Assembly (NCBI GenBank): GCA_964036295.1
Contig: OZ038462.1
Span: 14,849,264-14,913,263, forward strand
DNA: 64,000 nucleotides
Direction of reading: 5' to 3'
Origin: Plumapathes pennacea
Lineage: Eukaryota > Cnidaria > Anthozoa > Antipatharia > Myriopathidae
Part shown: positions 1 through 43,095 of the stretch, in pieces
How the letters are laid out: the number at the start of each line of letters is the position of its first letter
Position numbering within the stretch: position 1 is the first letter of the stretch
Notes under the pieces: generated by a model
Databases searched by the model: none
Seen by the model: only the letters and a program-made list of their open reading frames with translations
Told to the model about the DNA's origin: nothing
Program-made: the position numbers and the translations under genes

Positions 1-1040
1 GTGGAGGGCGGTGGGGATGGGATTGGAGGTGTGGCTGCTTGCGATGGGGCGTTTCTGTTGCAGTCTGTGCATCCCTCTGGCGTGTCGCGAATGTCCTGTG
101 ACATTCCTGGCCAGTACGCGATTGCGTGTGCGCATTGCTCCATCATGGAGGTGCCTTGGTGAGCAGCATGAAGGTGCTGTAGTACTTGGGTGCGGAGGGA
201 GGTTGGGACCACTACTCGATCTTGGAATAGTAGCACGCCTTCGTGGACATAGAATGACTCGCAGGCAGGCCAGTAGCTGGCCAGTGGGGTGTCAGTTCTG
301 TCGAAGCTTGTGTTTCCTTGCTCAATCAGTTTGAGGATGTAGCTTAAGGATGGGTCGGCTTCCGTTTCCCGAGCGAGGATTGGCCATGAGATCGTGCCTA
401 ACTCTTGCGCTTCGCTGCGGATGGAGGCCAATAGTGCTGACTCTGTCGCGTCAGGCGTAGTGCGTGAATCCTGAAAGCTGCAATCCACTGAGCTTGAGGG
501 CGAAGGGTGTCTCGAGGTTGCGTCAGCGGCAAGATTGGTCTTGCCTGGTTGGTGCACGATTTCGAACCGCCATGGAAGAGTGCGCTGCTTTAGACGGAAC
601 AGGCGAGAGTTTGAGATTTCGTCTAGGGTGCGGTCACCAAAGATCTTGGTTAGTGGCTTGTGATCGGTTACGATGATTAAGTTGTCGCATCCTTGCGTGA
701 AGTACCGCATCTGTTCGAGACCCCAGGCGACTGCAAGTGCTTCTCCCTCGATTGCTGCGTAGCGTTGCTCCGCTGAGGATAGGAAGCGGGAGCCTGCCAA
801 GCTGATTCTCCATCCCCCAGGGCAGCAGTCTGGGATGCCCAAGGGGCAGTCGCAGTGCTGTTGGAGCAGGAAGTAGCCGATGCCACGTTGAGACCAATCG
901 GGACGGAGGCAGGTGCGTTGCTGCATGTCGAAAATTTCGACTCCTTTGCGAATGGCTTCAACTATGGCTGATTTGGAAGACTGGAACGCTGCCTCGAGCT
1001 CGGGTGTCCACGAGAATTGGGTGCGAGCGCTTAAGGAATG
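1..1040 (-). pseudogene. Gypsy pol continuation: RNase H and start of integrase
   Basis: This is the frame-shifted continuation of pol on the minus strand, open from about 1040 to the window edge. It contains RNase H landmarks in order: RPDWSQRGIGYFLLQ, LSSAEQRYAAIEGEALAVAW and NLIIVTDHKPLTKIFG, then the linker FEIVHQPGKTNLAADATSR. Near the edge is an H2C2 integrase zinc-binding region (HLHAAHQGTSMMEQC ... GCTDCNRNAPSQ). There are no internal stops. Only the upstream frameshift separates it from the RT. The integrase catalytic core is outside the window. Confidence 0.85.
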
Positions 1041-2787
1041 GCTTAAAAGGCACCATGATGTCTCGCAGCTGGGCGTAGTTGGCGACTTGATTCATGAGCC
1101 CGAACCAGCTCCTGATGTCAGTGGTGGTTGGCGTGGGAAACTCTCGGATGGCGTCGAGGTATTTCGGTAGTGGCTCGATTCTGTCGTCGGATACCCTGAA
1201 CCCAGCAAAGTCGACTATCCTCTCAGCGAATTGGAACTTGTCTGAGTTCAGGACAATTCCTGCTCGCCCGACGCGTGTAAGGAATTCGATGGTTCTCCAC
1301 CAGTGCTGCTCCAGGTCTGTGTCGTGGTGGATTGTGTCGTCCACGCAGCATTCCTTGCGTTCGAAGGTGGATAGTACGGCGTCAAAGCGGCGGTTGTACC
1401 TGTCCCCGGATGACAGGAAGCCTTGAGGTGCTCTCGTATATCGCCAACGGCCGAAGGGAGTGATGAACATTGTCAGGTGGCGGTCGGGTTCGCGGAGGGG
1501 GACGCTGTGGTACCCGTTCCACGCATCGGTCACCGTCTTCCAGGTATTCTTGGGTATGCGACGCGCCAGCTGAAACGGGGACTCTGAGGCGAATGTCTCT
1601 CGTTTGCAAAACTTGTTTAGGGGCGAGAGATCAACTGTGCGTCGTGGAGACCCATCATGTTTCCGTGTGACCACCATACGATGGCACCATGTCACTGGTT
1701 CGCCATAGGGTACGCGCTCGATTACGCCCAGTGCTTCGTCGCGAAGCAGGTCTTCAAACACGCGCTGCTGCCAATGCAGGGGTACACTGGCCGGGGTATG
1801 GCATGCCTTTGGTTTGGCGTCAGGCTCCACAAGTATCTCAATCGGCGGACCATCCATGCAGGGTAGCGGTCTGTGGGGACAGGTGTTGAACGTCGAAGAC
1901 GCGTAGCGTTCGAGGAGCCACACTTTCATTCGCTCGTTGTTTTCCGGTGTGCATGGGAATGGGAGCTCGGATGGGCGTGGCGGTGGACTGCTGCGCTGTG
2001 GACAGGAGCACGTGGTGCAGCCTGGTGTGGTGGGTGTGTTGCAGCCGTCGTGGATTGATCGCGTTGCATTAATTGGCGGTGTCCCGCTGCTTTCGTCAGG
2101 GTGGGGATCGTAGAGGTTGACTGCGCGGGGGCTGGATGAGAACGCGATGGTTAGGAGGCCAAGGTTTAGGAGCGTCTCACATGACAGGTACAGGTCTTGA
2201 ACTGAGCTGCTAACGTACACCATGGACCGGCACCATGATTCCACGCCCTGTGGAGTCTTGGTTGTGAGCTTGGCAAAGAAGGCCCCTTCGACCAAAATGG
2301 GTGAGCGGTGAGCTGCAGACAAGCTCATCCGTATGGGATGGAGGTCATCACGTGAAAAGCCACAGGCGAGGAAATCGGACAAGGCCCATAGGTCGGATTG
2401 TGCACCGGTGTCGGCAATCCCAGATACGTCAGCAAGAGGGTTAGAGGCGTGGTGCGAGGAGCGGCTCTTTGTTCGGCCGGTGTTGTCTAGCTCAATGGTA
2501 ATGGGTACTCGCGGGTGGTCGCGAAGGCGGGCCCATCTCCATTCCCCTTTAGAAAAGATGTGATGACTTAGCGTTCCTGGTTTGCCGATGGACCCATGTG
2601 TCGTTGGGGTTTGATCTCGATTTCCTGGATGATCTGGGGTCTCTACTGCTTGAAAGGCTGCGAGCTGTGAGATGTGGTCAGCCTCTACAGCCTGAACGCT
2701 AGGTGTGTGGGCCTGGGGCGAGCGCCGTGGGCGCTGTTTCTGATGTCGGTCTCTGTAGCAGGTGATACACACCAGGTGGGGCTTCAT
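958..2787 (-). CDS. Gypsy pol: aspartic protease and reverse transcriptase
   Basis: The open frame is 609 residues. Near residue 135 the retropepsin motif appears as GIADTGAQSDLW. The reverse transcriptase follows from about residue 340: the substrate-side VTRKHDGSPRRTVDLSPLN, the FITPFGRWRY and APQGF boxes, and the catalytic box as CCVDDTIHHD (normally Y-x-D-D), then the thumb-side FAGFRVS. The frame ends early. After the segment MVPFKPFL the minus strand continues in another frame (SARTQFSWTPELEAAF, starting near 1040), which is the normal connection to RNase H. A single extra base at about 1040 explains this. The copy is therefore not functional as written. Confidence 0.85.
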   Translation of the reverse strand: MKPHLVCITCYRDRHQKQRPRRSPQAHTPSVQAVEADHISQLAAFQAVETPDHPGNRDQTPTTHGSIGKPGTLSHHIFSKGEWRWARLRDHPRVPITIELDNTGRTKSRSSHHASNPLADVSGIADTGAQSDLWALSDFLACGFSRDDLHPIRMSLSAAHRSPILVEGAFFAKLTTKTPQGVESWCRSMVYVSSSVQDLYLSCETLLNLGLLTIAFSSSPRAVNLYDPHPDESSGTPPINATRSIHDGCNTPTTPGCTTCSCPQRSSPPPRPSELPFPCTPENNERMKVWLLERYASSTFNTCPHRPLPCMDGPPIEILVEPDAKPKACHTPASVPLHWQQRVFEDLLRDEALGVIERVPYGEPVTWCHRMVVTRKHDGSPRRTVDLSPLNKFCKRETFASESPFQLARRIPKNTWKTVTDAWNGYHSVPLREPDRHLTMFITPFGRWRYTRAPQGFLSSGDRYNRRFDAVLSTFERKECCVDDTIHHDTDLEQHWWRTIEFLTRVGRAGIVLNSDKFQFAERIVDFAGFRVSDDRIEPLPKYLDAIREFPTPTTTDIRSWFGLMNQVANYAQLRDIMVPFKPFLKRSHPILVDTRARGSVPVFQISHS

Positions 2788-9891: not shown

Positions 9892-11008
9892 ATGAAGCAT
9901 GATCACGATTACGTTTTCTCCTGCAATTGTGTGGAGAATTGTACATGCATCGGTTGCTTGCAAAAAGAGCAAGAACTAAAGAAGAAGCAATCGGAAATTG
10001 ACCTCCTGCAATTCCAAAATTCATGTCTCCAAAACAAGCAGCAGTTAGGAAAAGGGGACACTGATGTGCTGGATAAATTCTTGAAAACCGATGCTAAAGT
10101 CAAAACGTACACTGGATTACCTAGTAAGAGCGCGTTTCAGGACCTCGCAAATTACTTAACTCCAAAAAGCCAAAAAAATAAGGTATTGAAGTGCCTCCAA
10201 GAAAGTAATTTCAAGCAAGGTACCCCGCAAATTTAAGAAGTCACCCAAAAAGTCAGGGCCAAAGAGAAAAATGAAAATAAAGGAGGAGTTGGCACTGGTT
10301 TTAATCAAACTACGCCTTGCAGTTAGGAATGAAATGCTTGGAGATTTATTTTCTATTAGCAAGGGTACTGTTTCCCAGATCTTCAACACCTGGATTAAGT
10401 TCCTGGCCCAGGAACTGAGGCCACTTGTGTACTGGCCCACCAAAGAGAGAATTAAGCAGTGTCTCCCATCATCCCTGTCAAATTACTCAAACCTTCGATG
10501 CACAGTTGACTGCAGCGAAGTATTTATTGATCGCCCAAGAAAGTTGGAAATCCAGGCTCTCACATGGTCTGACTACAAAAAGCATAACACTGTGAAATTT
10601 CTGGTAGAGATTGCACCAAACGGGATGATAAGTTTTCTGTCCAAGGCATGGGGTGGGCGGGCATCCGATCAACTGATCACAAGAGAATCAGGGTTCCTAA
10701 GGCTGGTGGATCCCACAGATTTGATAATGGCAGACAGGGGTTTTACAATCAAAGAAGACCTAATTGTTCGAGGGTCTACTCTGGAAATCCCTCCACCTAG
10801 CTCAGGGCTTGAGCAGATGACCAGAGAAAAAGTGAAAGCTACAAAAAGAATTGCAAATGCAAGGATACATGTAGAAAGGGCTATTGGTCGCATGAAGGGG
10901 TTTTCTATTCTCAAGGATGTCCTCCCAGTCACACTTGTACCTGTCATTGATGATATTCTTGTTGTTTGTGCAGGGCTTTGTAATCTTCTTCCACCATTAG
11001 TTACATAA
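9892..11008 (+). pseudogene. ISL2EU (IS5-like) DDE transposase, one frameshift
   Basis: The protein begins with a Cys-rich coiled segment (SCNCVENCTCIGCLQKEQEL), then a helix-turn-helix region (MLGDLFSISKGTVSQIFNTW) and a DDE_Tnp_4-type core: first Asp in LRCTVDCSEVFID, second in DLIMADRGFTI, Glu in ARIHVERAIGRMKGF. The family signature ALTWSDYKKHNTVKFL is present. The frame breaks at 10219-10220, where an extra G shifts FKQ|VPRKFKKSPKKSG out of frame. The downstream part (from ATG 10271) is clean to the TAA at 11006-11008. It would cut and insert the transposon DNA in the nucleus. Confidence 0.88.
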
Positions 11009-11039
11009 GATCTCAATTCATTATTTACAGATAGACTGG

Positions 11040-11354
11040 TATGGTGGCCCAGGACTGCCATAGGGAAATCATTAAAAAAAATCCATAAATCTAAAAATAA
11101 AATGAAACGAAATCGAAACAAAACGAAAACAAAAACAAAATAAATTGAAAACAAAAGTAAAAGCAAAACAAAAAACAAAGTAAATCAAAATCAAAATCAA
11201 AACAAATTGAAAACAAAAGTAAAGCAAAAAAAAGCAAAGCAAAACAAAATCAAAATCAAAATCAAACAAATTTAAAACAAAAGTAAAACGAAATGAAAAT
11301 CAAAATTCGCTGTGGCCCAGAGCTGCCATAGACCAGCATGCTTTGCACGCGTAT
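11040..11354 (+). repeat. Left terminal inverted repeat (about 315 bp)
   Basis: It starts TATGGTGGCCCAGGACTGCC, passes through about 200 bp of AAAACAAAATCAAAATC-type low-complexity DNA, then GCTGTGGCCCAGAGCTGCC and ATGCTTTGCACGCGTAT. The right repeat is the mirror image with small length differences in the low-complexity part. GGCCCAG(G/A)(A/G)CTGCCATAG occurs at both the outer and inner ends of each repeat. Confidence 0.93.
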
Positions 11355-11360
11355 CACCAA

Positions 11361-11397
11361 AACCTCGTTCCCAGGCTCTATATCCGGGAACGAGGTT
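11361..11397. promoter_or_regulatory. Perfect 12-bp hairpin between terminal repeat and kinase start
   Basis: AACCTCGTTCCC (11361-11372) and GGGAACGAGGTT (11386-11397) are separated by 13 bases. The hairpin lies between the left terminal repeat and the likely ATG at 11425. Its role is unknown. It could be a 5' UTR structure or a remnant of a short palindromic repeat. Confidence 0.6.
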
Positions 11398-11424
11398 GGA
11401 ACCAGCATGCTTCGCACAAACATC

Positions 11425-12735
11425 ATGGCCGAACAAGATGAAGCGTGGAGAACATTCAAAGACGCAATGAAACAAAAGCGTTGTGGTGGCGGTGGTAAAA
11501 ACGCAACAAAAGGTACAGACAAGAAGAATTGCAAAGAAGAGTTGACGGTGCAGCGCTTGAGTGCTGACGTAACCGGTAAAGCCCAGAAGTATGCACGAGT
11601 TGGTCCGCGGGAGTTTGTCGCTTTTAAGGACAGGGAGCTAACAATAGAAAACATTAAAGAGGCCTGTACAATCCACTTTGGATCTAAGATTGGATCGGAC
11701 ATGTGCTGCGACATTCTTGCAGGCGAGCAAGGGCCATCGTGTTCCTCGATCAAACAGATCCCAAACCTTAATCTAATCCACGTTCGCTTCGTCGAGGAAA
11801 CCGATCCTAGCGATGATTCAGGAATCATGCATGTGCAGCCATGTAAAAAGAAGTTTCGCAGCTTAAGCCCCATGCAGCCCCACAGAGCATCAACCATGGC
11901 ATCCAAGTCATGGGATAGTCTCCCTCCCCAAAAAAATGGTAACAAAGCGAAGGTTTGTCCAAAAAGTCTGTCAGTTTCAACAATCCTAAAGTTAGGAAGA
12001 GTTGTAGAATCCACTGGAACACTGGTCAGTTTGTATTCCTTCTGCCTGGAGACCATTACTTGGTCGAACATTCCAATCCCTGTGGAATTTGTCATTTCAC
12101 AAAGTGTTCTTGGTGAGGGAGCATTCAGAAAGGCTTACAAAGCAAGCAGTAGTACCAAAGGTTTTTCAAAAACCGCTTGGGTTATAAAAAAATACAAGCC
12201 AGCAGCATTGCAAGAAATTCAAAACATTAAGGAAACTGCGGAAAGCCACACAAAGAAAGTTGTACAAATGCACCAACTGGCACATAATGTTGCCTGCCAA
12301 CTGCAAGAGAAGGTCCGAAACGACGATGACCTAGTCGACACATTTGGTGACACTTTTCAATACAGAACCATTTACCTTGGAAAATTGCCAAATGAAGAGT
12401 TTGTAACAGTGGAGGAATTCGTGGAGGGCAAGGTTGTCAAACATGTGAACAATGATGGAATGCTTTGTGGCAGTGGTGAAATCAGTCAGAAGGCGCAGTG
12501 TCTTTCTCACTTTTCATATGAGAAAACAAACAAAGAAGTTATGCTGGTTGACATCCAAGGTTGTGGTTATAACCTCTTTGACCCTGAGATTGCCTCATCA
12601 GTTTTGGTAGACATGGACAACAACGAAATCATGTTCACCACAGGAAACCTATCAACTGCTGCAATTCAAAATTTTGTAGAAAAGCATGCGTGCAATGTGT
12701 TTTGCAGATGTCTGGGGTTGACGCCACTAAAATAA
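11425..12735 (+). CDS. Alpha-kinase domain protein carried by DNA transposon
   Basis: Single uninterrupted exon, 436 residues from the ATG at 11425 (context ATCATGGCC); an upstream in-frame ATG at 11338 lies inside the terminal repeat. Residues 1 to about 215 are unrecognised, with a basic, Gly-rich start. The rest is an alpha-kinase (myosin heavy-chain kinase/eEF2K type) domain: glycine-rich loop LGEGAFRKAYKA near residue 230, Lys in WVIKKYKP near 255, VEEFVEGKVVKHVNNDG, then CLSHFSYEKTNKEVMLVDIQG, the LFDPEIAS loop, and the closing Cys/His zinc cluster EKHACNVFCRCLGL. Every landmark I know for the family is present, so an active Ser/Thr kinase is plausible. No intron, frameshift or stop is seen, unlike nearly all neighbours. 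Confidence 0.9.
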   Translation: MAEQDEAWRTFKDAMKQKRCGGGGKNATKGTDKKNCKEELTVQRLSADVTGKAQKYARVGPREFVAFKDRELTIENIKEACTIHFGSKIGSDMCCDILAGEQGPSCSSIKQIPNLNLIHVRFVEETDPSDDSGIMHVQPCKKKFRSLSPMQPHRASTMASKSWDSLPPQKNGNKAKVCPKSLSVSTILKLGRVVESTGTLVSLYSFCLETITWSNIPIPVEFVISQSVLGEGAFRKAYKASSSTKGFSKTAWVIKKYKPAALQEIQNIKETAESHTKKVVQMHQLAHNVACQLQEKVRNDDDLVDTFGDTFQYRTIYLGKLPNEEFVTVEEFVEGKVVKHVNNDGMLCGSGEISQKAQCLSHFSYEKTNKEVMLVDIQGCGYNLFDPEIASSVLVDMDNNEIMFTTGNLSTAAIQNFVEKHACNVFCRCLGLTPLK

Positions 12736-13205
12736 CGTAATCCTAGCTGATAGTAGTACATTTGTTCTATAATGACAGACAAAAGTATTCTAAGGCATGT
12801 TGCCTTTATTCTTATAGCATTTCTGATGCTACTTTGTTTTGTTGCCACCAGGAAGTCCACAGAAATATTTTAAACTGTGCAGGACTCCTGATCATGTTCT
12901 TATACCATTTGTTTTGTTCGCTTGCCACTTTCTGGAAAACAGTTGGCAGTTGGGGGAAACCCTACTTCTACAGATGTATATATAGTCACAGCATCATGAT
13001 TCTGAAGCCTGGTGCAAATGGACACAACATTGTTTGCCAACAATTTGGGTGTTGTTGGCCCAACGAGTTTGTTTGATAAATGAAGTAAAGTTTAGATGCA
13101 ACATGGAGACCTAATACAAAAATTAAGGTTTATAACTTAGAATCAAGATTTCTAACTTTTGTTGTACAACTATTTGCATGCAAAATGCTGTTGGTTCCTT
13201 GACAA
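12736..13205. other. Spacer between the two convergent stops
   Basis: 470 bp of AT-rich sequence between the kinase stop and the transposase stop. No gene is visible. It should hold both polyadenylation regions; AATAAA-like strings are not clear enough to call. Confidence 0.6.
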
Positions 13206-15046
13206 TCATACAGTGAAATTGTCTTTAAGAAACAGGTAGGCTTGGCTGCATTCCTTGGGCTCAACATGAGAAGGAAAGGGTATGATGCTTTCACATCTGG
13301 CCCGGAATTCAGCTTCAAGGAAATCATTGTCAATTTCCAAAACTCCAGAATGCTGAGCGACTGCCTTTAGCTGCTCCTCTGTGACAGGGTGTCCTTCACG
13401 AGTTACAGTAGAAAGCCATTATTAGCTAAAGTTAGATGCACTGTGATAGATGTGGATGTGATCTACCAAGGTAAATTTCATTCAACAACTATTTTTTGTA
13501 AACAGTCTATCTACATGTAGGTTCCTGAAAAAAAAAAAAGAAAAAAAAATTATTTACCACACTCCTCCAATCCATATTCTTCTGGGAAGCTGTACATGTG
13601 GTCTGGAACACCACAAGGCAGGACAGTGTTTTTCTGAGTACGAATTCTGTGAGTGTTCCACACAGTTTCTCGGAATGTATCAAGTTGGCCTTGGAGTACT
13701 GGTATAAGTACAAATGCCAAAAGCTTCCTGGAAGTAAAAAAGCAAAAACTTGAGGGATCCTGCACAAACATTTTTATAATTCATTCTCTCTAAATCTAGA
13801 CTTGCGTCTCAGTGTCATTATTGCAATGTGCTGTGCTATGAAAGCACAATGTGTAATATTTTGGTTCTGATGCAATATGACATCACAGCCCAATGTCCTT
13901 CAACCAAACACATTTTATCAATATTGACTTGCCTGTCTGTCTCATTGTGTGGACTGTAGTGGCCCTGATCCTTAAGCCAACCAAGCTGTTCCTTGAAATA
14001 CTTCTCCATTCGTTCATGTAATTCTCTCCACCATCTTTCAATCTACATAGGAAAATAAATACATTCAGTTTATATTTGAAAAGTATATGTATTCACTAAA
14101 GGTAACGTGTTGAACAGAGCAACCTGTATTTTTTTTTTTTTTTCTGTACTGTGTACTTCTGGATAAGGGAAGACACACACAAGTATAAAAGACACTACAG
14201 TATTCTACTATACAGTTTGCATATATCAGTGCCATTTCTGAATGCATGCAGAAGGATCATTTTCTTTGCATAATGGGAAACTTGTGTGCTTACCTGGTTA
14301 GCCGTTGACGGTCCAAAGACTACTGTGTCACTGGGGTCCATGTCACCGTGGTTTTGGCGGAGGAATGCATGCATTGTAGCCATTATCCCAGTTTCAGTGC
14401 CTTTGTCCACTCTTACAATCGAGGAGATGCTTCTTGATTCATAGAGATGCTCTAAGTACCACCGACCAATTCGTTTGGGGTCAGAGTTGCTCACCCAGAC
14501 TCTTAACCACAAGAGTTTCCTGCTTGCTGTATCAATAGCACCGTAAATGGCAAGTGGGAATGTGCTGTTTTGATATCCCATTAGTTTGTCATGGCCATCC
14601 ATTGAGTGGACCCAATTAGTCCCTCTGGTCGAGAAATTTCCTTTGACCTTCCTCCTCTTTCTGATGGGGCATCGAGCTTCAAGGCCTTCTGGATCGAGAT
14701 CGAATAACACGTCATGTACCAAGTTCCGTGGTACATTGAGATGGTGCACCTGCCTTATTTTGTTGTACATGGCTCGATAGCCAAGAAGCCGGCCAGGTCC
14801 TTCAAGCTCTATTGTAATGGCTGCTCTTACTTCATCCACGGTGACATTCGTGTCAGTATAGCGGATATCAAAGTGTCGCAGACGCCGATCGAGGGTTCGC
14901 ATGCTCCAAGCGTATTGACTAAAGTCCCGTTTCATAAAACTCAAAATCTCTTCACGTTGAAGACCTTTGTGAACCAATTTCTGCATTTCTTCTTTTAAAA
15001 CAAGATCCTCAGTCCATCCATCATTTCGTATTCGAGCGGCGGCCAT
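13206..15046 (-). CDS. Integrase-fold (rve) DDE transposase, four exons
   Basis: Minus-strand exons 15046-14294, 14042-13933, 13727-13558 and 13393-13206 total 1221 bases with consistent phases, giving 406 residues; an upstream ATG at 15097 would add 17. Introns 1 and 3 are GT..AG, and intron 2 has a GC donor (ACAG|GCAAGT). An N-terminal helix-turn-helix-like region (VHKGLQREEILSFMKRDFSQ) precedes the rve core: Asp150 in NWVHSMDGHDKLMGYQ, Asp214 in IVRVDKGTETGIMATMHAF, Glu253 in the spliced TANQ|IERWWRELHERM, spacing D-63-D-38-E. The C-terminal tail has LDTFRETVWNTHRIRTQKN and ends KDNFTV. No stop or frameshift was found once spliced, so it may still work as the transposase of its element. 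Confidence 0.88.
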
Positions 15047-15080
15047 GATTATGGTATGGTGACACCAGTCCTTCTCGGTC

Positions 15081-15398
15081 ATACGCGTGCAAGGCATGCT
15101 GGTCTATGGCAGCTCTGGGCCACAGCGAATTTTGATTTTCATTTCGTTTTACTTTTGTTTTAAATTTGTTTGATTTTGATTTTGTTTTGCTGTGCTTTTT
15201 TTTTTTGCTTTACTTTTGTTTTCAATTTGTTTTGATTTTGATTTTGATTTTGATTTACTTTGTTTTTTGTTTTGCTTTTACTTTTGTTTTCAATTTATTT
15301 TGTTTTTGTTTTCGTTTTGTTTCGATTTCGTTTCATTTTATTTTTAGATTTATGGATTTTTTTTAATGATTTCCCTATGGCAGTCCTGGGCCACCATA
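15081..15398 (-). repeat. Right terminal inverted repeat (about 318 bp)
   Basis: Mirror copy of 11040-11354. It carries the TTTTGATTTTGATTTTG low-complexity core and ends GGGCCACCATA next to the GACTGG duplication. An in-frame upstream ATG of the transposase (15097) lies inside it. Confidence 0.93.
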
Positions 15399-15667
15399 GA
15401 CTGGGTACTTGCTCATCACATATTACTGGCATTGAATATTGAACAAGTACAGTATGTAATAGTTGTGTTTGTACAGTAGTTTCTTTTAAAAAAATCACAG
15501 ATAAATCAGAATTATTGATGTATCTGAAATATGGATTTTTAAAATCAATAAAAGAAATTTGTGATGAACTTGACTTGTACTAATGTTGTACTTGCAACAA
15601 TATTGCACACCCAGTAAAATCATTCACTACAAATTTAACAATGCATCAGTTAATTACATACAGCTAG

Positions 15668-17732
15668 CTAAAGCTCAGGATGGTCCTCACACTCTTCCTG
15701 TGCTGAGTGCGATGGGACTGCAGAGCATGATGCCTTCATAGAGAGTAACTCGGGGGCCAAATAATTGGCAAAAAAATAGTCAGCAGCCTTAAGAAGCTTC
15801 ATCCACACTTCATCTTGAAACATGATTCTCTCCATGTGAAACCCATGATGTGTGTAAACAAAAGTCACACCATTTCCTGCCTAAGACACCCATTTGTGCC
15901 TGCATTTGACTGAAATATGGATGATTAGGAACAAGCCTAACATCCTGTGAGCCATCCTTTAAATATGGTAAATTTGCCTCACATGGGCTTTGGTTAGCAA
16001 TACTGAATGGGCATTTTATTTCTAGTAGACCCTCTCCACAGCAACTGCAACTGACTAAACCATCAGGACTTGCCCCAATGTAAGCCTTGTCTTGAAGTAA
16101 GAAAAGTCCACATGATTTCACTTGAATATTCTTGTGCTTCTGCAACTTCATCTCATTTACGTACTTTGTACGAGCCTCCTCCTCCAATTGCTGACCATAC
16201 TTGAGAGAAGGTATACATTGGGTTGGGATTGAAGATGACTGCCCTGTAAGTGATCTCACTAATGGAATGGCAGAAGCAGTGTCTGGTTTTCTCTGCAGAG
16301 AGTTCACTTTCGTCATAACCCTGTGAATATTTGATGCAGTTATCCTGCCAATCCGCTGGGTGCTCCACAATTGGTTGTCACTCTGGCCTTGTGTACTCTC
16401 CTCAAGCATTTCTATTTCTTTAGTTTCAATTGCATTTATTGCTACCCTAAGTTCATCCACTGTATCAGCACTGGAAACAAGATCTGTTATACTCGGAGGT
16501 ATGTTTGGTGTTGTCTCAACATCAATACACTTCTCAACATTGAAGTCAGCTTCAGGTGGGTACTCGTTAGTAACAGGAATATCAGCATAATGGAACACAG
16601 GCAGATGGCTTATTGATGGCTTGGGTTGATCACATGGATGGGTTGGATGGATGGGTTGATCACATTTGATTTTCCTGCAACAAAACAGCATTGCACATCA
16701 CATGAATCTGAAGTGTGCCAAGCTACTACTTTTCCAGAGGAACAGTGCATTTTATAAATATAATATATTGTTGGCAGAAGAGCATCACTTCCTAAAGGGC
16801 TTTCATCTTTTTGCTACTACACATGAAATTATGATATTATGTTACAAGACCTTTCTTGTGGTAATGAGGCTTTTTCCATTCCATTTTTGCAACTTCTCGT
16901 GGTGTAATCTTCTTCTTCTTTGCTCCATATTCATTCCATGCACATTCCTTAGAAGTTGGAGATTCCCCCAGTGTCAATCCATTCATCCAGGCATGTTCTA
17001 CTTTAAATAGCACTGCTGCAACATGATTACAGGTTGACCCAAAACTCAAATGCAAAATATTGCAATCTCTTACAATATGTACATGAGTTTATGTCAGACC
17101 CTTTTCGATACTCACCCAGCAAAACAAGTGCAGTATACACTCTGCACAGTTCCAGTCTTTCTATCAACACAGACCCAGATCTTGTGCGGAACATTGTTGA
17201 TGCTCTGAGATGGTGTCGACTCGGATTTCAAAAAGCATAACTCGTGGGAGATCTCGTGGTACAATATTTCCCTCAGCCATTTGGAGTCAAAGTACCTGTA
17301 TGCTTTTCCCTCCTTGTAGTCACTGAGAAGTCTTTTCCCCAATGTTGCCCCGTTTTCTGCTGACAGTAAAAATTCTGCAATCTGTAGCTGGAAAATAGAC
17401 GGCCACTTTTCCATGCCTTCAGATTCCTGCACCCAACTGCTTTCATCCAACTCCACAAATGGATCGGGTAGTTGCTTTCCTCTACAGTGCAACAGAACTT
17501 TGTACTGCTCAGCCTTTGCCATTGCCTCCCGTTTTGCAGTCAGCTTTAAGGGGACTGAAAATTGTTCGGCACCGAAGGCAAGAGCCGTAAGTTCTTCCTT
17601 GGTTCCAGTAGTTTTAAGTCCACAATTTCGCAAATAATTCTTCAGCTCTGGGATTTTCCATCGTTTAAAATCGTCGAGAGACATCTCAGGTGAATCGGTT
17701 GAAAAAGACATGATGAAAAAGACATGATCCAC
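15668..17732 (-). pseudogene. SAP-SWIM-YqaJ nuclease of ISL2EU element, one frameshift
   Basis: Exon 1 (17732-17116) starts MDHVFFIMSF and carries a SAP DNA-binding motif (DDFKRWKIPELKNYLRNCGL..). Its end (VYCTCFAG) joins the next exon (about 17045-16855: FGSTCNHVAAVLFK) to complete a CxC..CxH SWIM zinc finger. Exon 3 (about 16675-15668) is a YqaJ/lambda-exonuclease-like domain: WSTQRIGRITASNIHRV, GQQLEEEARTKY, YIGASPDGLVSC, LLEIKCPFSIA, YFSQMQAQMGVL. The phase of the exon 2/exon 3 join is unresolved. One extra base in an A/T run at 15860-15863 breaks the C-terminus (MTFVYTHHGFHMERIMF resumes in another frame), downstream of the catalytic residues. ISL2EU elements are known to pair their transposase with a YqaJ nuclease. 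Confidence 0.82.
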
Positions 17733-40768: not shown

Positions 40769-43095
40769 ATGTCCAAGAAACACCGGAAACAATTCAAGGC
40801 AAATGGCAGTGTGTTTGAGTGGACTACCGGGACTACCAGCGTTCGACGCTGTAGGCAAACCAGCAACCTTGGCACCACGATGGCAAAACATGGAAGGCAG
40901 AGTTTGAACTGTACGTGGTTGCATGGGGAATTGCAGACCCTACGCAGAAATGCGCCCTTCTCCTGCATCTTGCCGGCCCAGCTGTGAGAGACATTTCAAG
41001 ACCATCGCCGATGACACAAAAGGAGGCACCAAAGATTACGACAAAGGCATGGAAAGCTTGTCAAATTACTTCAAGGTGAAAAAGAACGCCCCAATGGCGA
41101 GACAGACATTCTTATCGACTAAACCCAATCCTGGAGAAACCATAAACAACTTTGTGTTGCGTCTCAAAACCCTGGTGGAACACTGCGACTATGAACAGGA
41201 GTAACACAACCAGGTGAGAGACCACAAGATTTCGTTTATCAAGAATCACAATCTAAAGGCAAAACTGTATCGCGAAGAGACACTGACATTGAGCAAACTC
41301 CTAGAAATTGTCAGTCTGTACCATGACAAGGAAGCACTCATACTCCCGCCAGAAATCCACATAAACAAAATCAATGCTGATTACAAAGGTGACAATTCGC
41401 CAAATTCAAAGGACGATGCTGGAAGTGTGACAAGATAGGTCACCAAAGCAAAGACTGCAGGGTTTCCCGCGACCACAAATGTGAGATGTGGTACCATGGG
41501 TCACTTCAAAGCATGCTGTCGCAGCCAGAAAACCACTGCCCATACCATGGGCATGAGCGTGGATGTGAAAAAACCCATGAGCGAGGAAAAGGATGTTTGT
41601 GAAGACCGCACAAGGTCCAGGCAGTCACTGAAGACACAAGCGCAGAGAGTTCAGCATCAAGTGAGGACTGCTACCTGTTCAACACTACACCCACTGAGGA
41701 TTCAAGCAATCTGGAACTATATAGAAGATAAGCCCATTAGTGTAATAATAGATTCTGGTGCTAGTTGCAATCTAATGTCAGAAGAGGTGTTTGAATATGT
41801 GACAGGGGAAAAGTTAGCCTGTCTGAGTGTAACAAAAGAGTGTATGCTTATGCATCTACCAAACCCCTCCACCTCAAAGGAATGTGTAGCTTACAAGTAT
41901 GTGTACCCCAAACAAAAATGTCAAGGCCCACACAGTTTTTCATTGTACCTGGTAAAACAGCAGCACTATTGGGTCATGAAACATCCCAGTCACTTAACAT
42001 CTTAAGGATCGGGGTGTCTGTCAATAATTGCAGTATCAAGCTAAGCAACACAAGCAATAATAAGAGGCAGTACACAGATAAGAAAGCTGCCCTTAAGGCA
42101 AAATATCCCAAAGTATTTCAGGGCCTGGGTAAGCTAAGAAACTATCAGTTAAAGCTCCATATTGATGCGAGTGTACACCCAGTGGCCCAACCTGTGCAAA
42201 GAATCTCTTTCAGTAGAAGGAAGATTATGGAGAAGTTGGAACAACTTGAAGAGCTTGATGTCATTGAAAAAGTGGATGGCCCTACCAGCTGGGTCAACCC
42301 CCTGGTAGCTGTTGAGAAGTCCAACGGTGATGTCAGAATATGCCTAGACATGAGGCAAGCCAACGAAGCAATAGTAAGGGAGAAACACCCATCCCTACAG
42401 TGGAAGAAACACTGCAGGAGGTTTCATACGCCAGTGTTCTCCAAGCTAGACCTGAATATGGCATTCCACCAAATCGAGCTCCACCCCAACTCCAGGAACA
42501 TTACTACCTTTGCAGAACCAAACGGCCTATACAGATACAAACGACTTCTGTTTGGTGTGAATATGGAAACATCGAAATTCCAGCAAATTGTGTGGCAAGT
42601 CATCAAGGACTGTCCAGGTGCACACAACATTCATGATGACCTGTGAGTGGTTGGTGCGGAGGAGAAAGAGCATGACGAAAACCTGAAGAGTCATGGACAA
42701 ACTCGAACAAAACGGATTGACACTCAACTACGGGAAATGTGAGATTGGTGAAGGACTGAAAGTGTCAGGTGAGCAGGTGAAAGCAATCATTCATGCTCCA
42801 CGACCCCAGAACCAGTTGGAGATGAGGAGCTTCCTTGGTGCACTCCAATTCTGTGCCCAGTTCATCCGAGGATTTGCCACCATCCTGAGTCCGCTATGGG
42901 ACCTGACATGCAAAGGTGCACAGTGGAAGTGGAGTGAGAGAGAGGAAAAGGCATTTCAAGAAGTGAAAACCAAGCTCACCCAGGCACCTGTGATGGCCTA
43001 CTACAAGCAGGAGGCCAAAACCAGGATCACAACAGATGCCTATACCTATACCTATATGGGATTGACTTCAAAGTCTGCACAGACCATAAGGGTAA
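40769..43095 (+). pseudogene. Gypsy gag-protease-RT, many frameshifts
   Basis: The reading hops between frames. Gag begins around 40820 (FDAVGKPATLAPRWQ, ELYVVAWGIADPTQKCALLL, DYDKGMESLSNYFKVKKNAP, GETINNFVLRLKTLVEHCDY). Two CCHC knuckles follow in different frames (CWKCDKIGHQSKDC; CGTMGHFKACC). The retropepsin motif is at about 41740 (ISVIIDSGASCNLMSEEVF). RT runs from about 42200 (DVIEKVDGPTSWVNPLVAVE, RICLDMRQANEAI, FSKLDLNMAFHQIELHP, catalytic NIHDDL followed by an in-frame TGA). The thumb and tether continue to MRSFLGALQFCAQFIRGFA, and RNase H is truncated, jumping from RITTDA to DFKVCTDHK. It cannot encode a working polyprotein. Confidence 0.85.

What the first reader, a model, noticed from the sequence alone, without database searches (positions are those of the whole stretch)
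11040..15398. Complete DNA transposon carrying an intact alpha-kinase gene
Seen: about 315-bp inverted repeats, perfect GACTGG target duplication, a 436-residue frame with every alpha-kinase landmark (LGEGAFRKAYKA, VIKKYK, VEEFVEGK, HFSYE..VDIQG, HACNVFCRCLGL) and an rve-type transposase. Known: alpha-kinases (eEF2K, MHCK, TRPM6/7) are host signalling enzymes; I know of none as standard cargo of an IS3EU-type transposon. Inference: the kinase is under selection as part of the element, perhaps acting on host translation or on the transposase.
Basis: partly seen in the sequence, partly recalled or inferred. Interest (0 to 1): 0.9.

Follow-up and report, generated by a model that had tools for sequence, protein, structure and literature searches.

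The report
Jumping gene carrying its own kinase
This is a complete cut-and-paste DNA transposon whose second gene encodes an alpha-kinase; most alpha-kinase-like stretches read in this genome resemble this transposon gene rather than host kinases, so an enzyme type known from host signalling is here a long-kept part of a genetic parasite.

Summary
Window 11040-15398 is an intact IS3EU-type transposon: 319/322-nt inverted repeats, TATGG..CCATA ends, and a GACTGG duplication proven by an empty site in the same genome. It carries an open 436-aa alpha-kinase and a 4-exon, 406-aa rve-type transposase, convergent. The kinase is not a one-off capture: in the 290-Mb genome 34 of 56 alpha-kinase places lie within 10 kb of a related transposase (0.4 expected), 33 of them convergent. 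Of 20 other long loci read, 12 have matched ends and perfect 6-bp duplications. Recent stop-free kinase copies show constraint (omega 0.39; degraded group 0.93). In a tree the kinase is apart from TRPM7, eEF2K and MHCK-A, and it has a conserved N-terminal beta-grasp-like domain. Trees suggest exchange between element families. New here: the animal-type element, its abundance, constraint and exchangeability, and a likely explanation for kinase-only 'TRPM6-like' gene models. The substrate is unknown; a nuclear, host-directed role is the best guess.

The parts
11034..11039 (.). left copy of 6-bp target site duplication GACTGG
   Evidence: sequence; single GACTGG at the empty site
11040..11358 (+). 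left terminal inverted repeat (TATGGTGGCC..., 319 nt); its first part recurs at 11312-11331 (20 nt, 90%)
11425..12735 (+). alpha-kinase gene, 436 aa (open frame from 11338)
   Evidence: start as in relatives
11530..11811 (+). N-terminal beta-grasp-like domain of the kinase (ORF residues 65-158), more conserved than the catalytic domain
12013..12732 (+). alpha-kinase catalytic domain (ORF residues 226-465)
13206..15046 (-). transposase gene, exons 15046-14294, 14042-13933, 13727-13558, 13393-13206; 406 aa; D150, D214 and E253 as probable DDE triad
   Evidence: the triad assignment is mine from conservation
15077..15398 (-). right terminal inverted repeat, 322 nt
15399..15404 (.). right copy of target site duplication GACTGG

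Best explanation
An intact two-gene IS3EU-type transposon, inserted into another sequence with DDE_Tnp_4 and YqaJ frames (probably one other DNA transposon). Shown: the rve transposase and the alpha-kinase are convergent, each starting just inside a terminal repeat, so each repeat probably holds a promoter (inference). Shown: the kinase has been kept through deep divergence of the element, with a catalytic domain whose key residues are intact and a conserved beta-grasp-like N-terminal domain. Inferred, about 0.4: the kinase enters the nucleus and phosphorylates a host chromatin, silencing or repair factor, or a conserved part of the transposition complex, so that the element can be expressed and moved; the N-terminal domain recruits the target. 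The identity of the element is about 0.97 sure, the kinase as a selected component about 0.9; the stated confidence covers the whole chain.
Against: No expression, localisation or substrate data. L016-L019 show 7 non-synonymous and 1 synonymous change (too few, but no sign of constraint). Kinase and transposase distances correlate only weakly (Mantel r 0.39, p 0.07). 40 of 73 higher-identity transposase places and 35 of 35 lower-identity ones have no kinase hit within 10 kb. The 20 long loci were the best-scoring kinases, so intact ones are over-represented. The exchange test named its groups after the distances had been seen.
Confidence: 0.5

Rival explanations
1. The kinase acts on its own transposase: it phosphorylates it, or the complex on the terminal repeats, to license or limit transposition.
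For: Lasting physical linkage and convergent layout; kinase and transposase are the only two genes I recognise in the window's element.
Against: The L009-L011 kinase groups with that of L013/L027 (100/98), whereas the transposase data reject that grouping (p-AU 0.0005), so a kinase seems able to serve a different transposase; a conserved transposase site could still be the target.
Confidence: 0.3
2. The kinase acts in the cytoplasm on translation, like eEF2K, or on the cytoskeleton, like MHCK.
For: Same catalytic fold as eEF2K and MHCK-A; some relatives bear those names in databases.
Against: Pfam finds only Alpha_kinase in the protein; the clade is separate from eEF2K, MHCK-A and TRPM7 (99/97, with a long-branch warning); basic linker motifs suggest the nucleus.
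Confidence: 0.12
3. Passive cargo: a host kinase captured once and carried along without use.
For: No second DNA-level copy of the window kinase was found in its genome (which scored 40 of 128 candidates); the nearest copy of the element (C3, L030) lacks the kinase half.
Against: Eight diverged representatives show saturated pS with pN 0.26-0.45 over the catalytic domain; catalytic residues are intact in 19 of the 20 transposon-type loci checked including the window, the exception being L012 at one zinc-ligand position; the C3 copy appears one-ended, not a complete kinase-free element.
Confidence: 0.04
4. The kinase mainly benefits the host (domesticated) and the transposon ends are incidental.
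For: Some kinases stand without a transposase (L014, L020; 22 of 56 places).
Against: L014 and L020 are close kin of element kinases and each keeps one element-type end; L016-L019 are near-identical copies at four sites with four different duplications.
Confidence: 0.04

Closest known systems
TET-bearing IS3EU families of fungi, rusts and one truffle (PMC12730594, 2025; author Kojima by recall; passages and section 4.1 read)
   Same: 6-bp duplications and TAYGG..CCRTA ends (stated for the rust families), transposase and alpha-kinase in opposite orientations
   Different: Here an animal-type element without a recognised TET/JBP gene between them; repeats of about 320 nt. Sequences were not compared (none held).
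IS3EU/GingerRoot superfamily (PMC10045372, passages read)
   Same: TA..TA termini, usually 6-bp duplications, DDD/E transposase
   Different: That paper does not mention a kinase (0 occurrences of the word).
Fungal Intons derived from IS3EU (Kapitonov, meeting report PMC3520738, passage read)
   Same: IS3EU-derived transposons with extra conserved proteins; host-derived transposon proteins proposed there to regulate transposition
   Different: Five to six proteins in fungi; proteins not named in the passage.
TRPM7, eEF2K, MHCK-A, ALPK1 kinases
   Same: Alpha-kinase fold and matching catalytic motifs
   Different: Separate clade from TRPM7, eEF2K and MHCK-A; stand-alone 436-aa protein with a beta-grasp-like N-terminal domain; gene lies in a transposon.

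Membership tests
IS3EU superfamily | Termini TA..TA, more narrowly TAYGG..CCRTA | tested here: met
   TATGG..CCATA; definition
IS3EU superfamily | 6-bp target site duplication | tested here: met
   GACTGG with empty site; 12 of 20 other long loci examined also perfect
IS3EU superfamily | rve-type DDE transposase | tested here: met
   Pfam rva_4 73.9 bits on three spliced exons; D150, D214 invariant and E253 at least 90% in 29 proteins
IS3EU superfamily | Transposase groups with curated IS3EU transposases | not testable with these tools
   Repbase sequences are not held
Alpha-kinase family | Sequence family and catalytic/zinc residues | tested here: met
   residue roles recalled from TRPM7 and matched through the alignment
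Alpha-kinase family | Alpha-kinase fold | tested here: met
Alpha-kinase family | Kinase activity | not testable with these tools
   needs biochemistry
TRPM6/7 channel-kinases | TRPM channel domains | tested here: not met
   436-aa protein, only Alpha_kinase in Pfam at E up to 1
eEF2K | Groups with eEF2K | tested here: not met
   Other side of a 99/97 branch (the three PDB host rows were stretches of 95-181 aa; the tool warned of long branches)
Ubiquitin-like beta-grasp fold (N-terminal domain) | beta-grasp topology | tested here: inconclusive

The most novel reading that the evidence does not exclude
A clade of animal IS3EU transposons carries, as a fixed but exchangeable second gene, a dedicated nuclear alpha-kinase with its own beta-grasp targeting domain that disarms a host silencing or repair factor; many alpha-kinase genes of cnidarians and tunicates now named TRPM6-like, eEF2K or MHCK-D are this transposon gene. 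It would be a transposon weapon of a kinase kind, parallel to the TET dioxygenase of fungal IS3EU.
Probability: 0.3. Interest if true: 0.8.

Novelty: new member of a known kind. Interest (0 to 1): 0.55.

Why it matters
Few eukaryotic cut-and-paste transposons are known to keep a signalling enzyme as a lasting part (my judgement). Here it can be studied with intact and broken copies side by side in one genome. It also bears on annotation: a 2026 study reports that some cnidarian 'TRPM6-like' genes hold only a kinase domain (PMC13143021, passages read), and several relatives of this transposon kinase carry just such names; whether those particular genes lie in transposons was not tested. The alpha-kinase expansion reported in rusts (PMC4469406, passage read) may likewise be transposon copies, given the remark in PMC12730594; that is inference.

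Tried and rejected
One-off host capture: rejected. Virus or prokaryote carriers: no relative confirmed in viral contigs (82 pattern matches) or genome contigs (115); the viral fold library gave nothing at E 0.001 or better. A lost fourth splice acceptor in the transposase, suspected, was wrong: an AG acceptor lies at 13394-13395. The C3 copy as a kinase-free active element: not supported, only one end was found; the same for L062 within the 5.5 kb read. The other kinase-free transposase places (40 of 73 in the higher-identity class) were not read closely, so complete kinase-free elements are not excluded. Strict co-divergence of kinase and transposase: not supported (Mantel p 0.07). A name for the N-terminal domain: Pfam gave only Alpha_kinase at E up to 1; fold matches weak. 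A DNA comparison with other animal genomes was not possible; only equal contig lengths hint at linkage there. Papers: the searches were made; of the 11 papers holding both 'IS3EU' and 'kinase' I opened 3 (PMC12730594, PMC3520738, PMC5753468), and only the first ties an alpha-kinase to IS3EU. The other 8 were seen as listings only.
Full report
THE ELEMENT. Window 11040-15398 begins TATGGTGGCC and ends GGCCACCATA, between two copies of GACTGG. The inverted repeats are 319 and 322 nt, 96% alike. The insertion is proven by an empty site: a second copy of the surrounding sequence on the same contig (C1:11799496 onward) matches the joined flanks 416 of 423 without a gap, with a single GACTGG. The surrounding sequence has a DDE_Tnp_4/HTH_Tnp_4 frame on one side and a YqaJ frame on the other, so the element probably sits inside another DNA transposon.

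THE TWO GENES. The kinase frame is open from 11338 to 12735; the relatives I looked at start at the equivalent of codon 30, giving 436 aa from 11425. The transposase on the other strand has four exons (15046-14294, 14042-13933, 13727-13558, 13393-13206), one GC-AG intron, and 406 aa before its stop. Spliced over three exons it matches Pfam rva_4 at 73.9 bits; the unspliced exon-1 frame reached only 19 bits, below the cut-off. D150 and D214 are invariant and E253 at least 90% conserved among 29 transposases; reading these as the DDE triad is mine. The genes converge, and each starts within about 70 nt of the inner end of a terminal repeat, so promoters in the repeats are likely (inference).

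ONE OF MANY. The window's genome is held as G000: 290 Mb, 24 contigs, unnamed. Alpha_kinase gives 63 hits there and the transposase 149; the tool calls such counts lower bounds. Merged, they make 56 and 108 places. Of the 56 kinase places, 34 have a transposase within 10 kb: 33 convergent, and one second kinase fragment on the same strand as its neighbour; 22 have none. Random placement predicts 0.42. Of the 20 hits with a full-length domain and no stop (my count, window included), 18 have the transposase beside them. Conversely, 33 of the 73 transposase places of at least 46% identity have a kinase, 40 do not, and none of the 35 more distant ones (31-44%) has one.

READING THE COPIES. Seventeen carry the transposase facing the kinase; L014, L020 and L025 do not. 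A scan for TAYGG..CCRTA ends found, besides the window, 12 of the 20 with matched ends and a perfect 6-bp duplication, 2 with matched ends but no clean duplication (L011, L024) and 6 without matched ends (L012, L014, L020, L025, L026, L028). L016-L019 are near-identical elements at four places with four different duplications. Nineteen further short pieces were read. Of the 39 loci read besides the window, 37 score higher with transposon-type kinases than with the TRPM7, eEF2K or MHCK-A stretches; two do not: L025, and L042, 57% identical to eEF2K (7shq) over about 60 residues. Fifteen of the 56 places were not read. L014 and L020 each keep one element-type end.

CONSTRAINT. In recent contrasts between kinases without stops (L009-11, L016-19, L022-28) there are 23.5 synonymous and 34.5 non-synonymous changes over 2303 codons: omega 0.39, p 3.6e-4. 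Adding L013/L027, where L013 has a stop, gives 0.38, p 8.6e-7. The degraded group L014/L021/L026 (stops in L021 and L026) gives 0.93. Against this, L016-L019 alone show 1 and 7 changes, too few to judge. The transposases of the same contrasts give 0.52. Between eight diverged representatives synonymous sites are saturated (pS 0.73-0.88 in the catalytic domain) while pN is 0.26-0.45. K284, E359, H391, D405, Q407, D415, H450, C452 and C456 are kept in the window and in 18 of the 19 other transposon-type loci checked; L012 differs at one zinc-ligand position. L025, the host-like locus, also differs at one position, and its matched stretch does not cover the lysine.

A MODULE THAT MOVES. In trees of 15 loci (L017, L019 and L024, near-identical copies, left out) the kinases of L009-L011 group with L013/L027 (100/98), but their transposases group with L016-L028 (100/99). 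The transposase data reject the kinase grouping (p-AU 0.0005), and the kinase data reject the transposase grouping (p-AU 0.015). The groups were named after the distances had been seen. Over eight families the two distance matrices correlate weakly (r 0.39, p 0.07). So the slot for a kinase appears more stable than the particular kinase in it, which argues mildly against a kinase fitted to one transposase.

ELSEWHERE. The kinase search found 316 relatives, the transposase search 631, a second kinase query 170; the 120 best of each were listed, most without a name. Named sources of kinase or transposase relatives include Paramuricea, Dendronephthya, Actinia, Actinostola, Desmophyllum, Exaiptasia, Stylophora, Clytia and Porites (cnidarians), Saccoglossus (hemichordate), Ciona and Phallusia (tunicates); the group labels are recalled. 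Names given to the kinases include TRPM6-like, MHCK D-like and eEF2K. Four kinase/transposase pairs sit on contigs of identical length (268778, 85488, 64267 and 5435 bases), which suggests the same contig; of lengths above 10 kb three coincide exactly and no further pair falls within 50 bases, one within 100. Shared lengths of 1668 and 1503 bases are too short to count. One kinase model, P0007, begins with 47 residues of the transposase (53% identity). No DNA of another animal genome could be read, and no relative was confirmed in viral or prokaryotic collections.

CLADE. In a tree of 40 kinase domains (chosen from those in hand), the 36 of transposon type are on one side of a 99/97 branch, with TRPM7, eEF2K, MHCK-A and L025 on the other. 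The host rows are long-branched and partial, the tool warned of a long-branch join, and the bootstrap had not quite settled.

PRIOR KNOWLEDGE. PMC12730594 (2025; passages, section 4.1) says that all TET-bearing IS3EU families hold the TET/JBP gene between transposase and alpha-kinase genes, which are in opposite orientations; these families are from rust fungi and one truffle. That is the layout seen here without a TET gene. A 2012 meeting report (PMC3520738, passage) mentions fungal Intons derived from IS3EU and host-derived proteins thought to regulate transposition. A 2026 TRPM study (PMC13143021, passages) notes kinase-only cnidarian 'TRPM6-like' genes; its main text has no word beginning with 'transpos'. 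A fungal genome paper says alpha-kinases are highly expanded in rusts (PMC4469406, passage). I found no paper describing the animal elements within the searches listed under Tried and rejected; Repbase itself could not be searched and may hold them.

VERDICT. Observation confirmed. The element is a new member of a known kind, IS3EU with an alpha-kinase, here shown to be abundant and constrained in one genome whose nearest named relatives are animals. What the kinase phosphorylates is the open question. I favour a nuclear host target or a conserved part of the transposition machinery, at about 0.4, over its own transposase alone at about 0.3.

Noticed in passing
window 10271-11008 (+) and 15810-16691 (-): DDE_Tnp_4/HTH_Tnp_4 transposase frame and YqaJ nuclease frame, probably two genes of one element (ISL2EU-like, a recalled label) interrupted by the IS3EU insertion.
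   Followed up: partly
G000:C1:11794338-11800974: Second copy of that host element; about 4.5 kb of other sequence lies between the parts matching window 10240-10914 and 10913-11039, probably another insertion.
   Followed up: no
L030 (C3:10359247-10364653): Nearest copy of the element (96%), cut off at element position 1952; the sequence beyond holds an open stretch that looked OTU-like to me by eye.
   Followed up: no
L045, L049, L051, L052, L053: Five places hold a fragment of about 67 aa, 58-64% identical to the window kinase; four are on C12 and cover the same part, perhaps amplified inside another repeat.
   Followed up: no
G000:C1:14753214-14755089 and C6:1839775-1841668: Two convergent transposase hits about 0.8 kb apart with no kinase hit: possibly elements with a second transposase in place of the kinase.
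   Followed up: no
L009 (C11:8507517-8516900): One pair of ends encloses a full kinase and a second kinase fragment next to transposase pieces: a rearranged or nested element.
   Followed up: no
L022-L024, L028: Transposases carry stops in three of four and show omega about 0.8, while the kinases have no stop in the compared parts and omega 0.36: the kinase may outlast the transposase in this family.
   Followed up: partly
window 958-2787 (-) and 41840-42646 (+): Reverse transcriptase frames (RVT_1; the second just under the Pfam cut-off).
   Followed up: no
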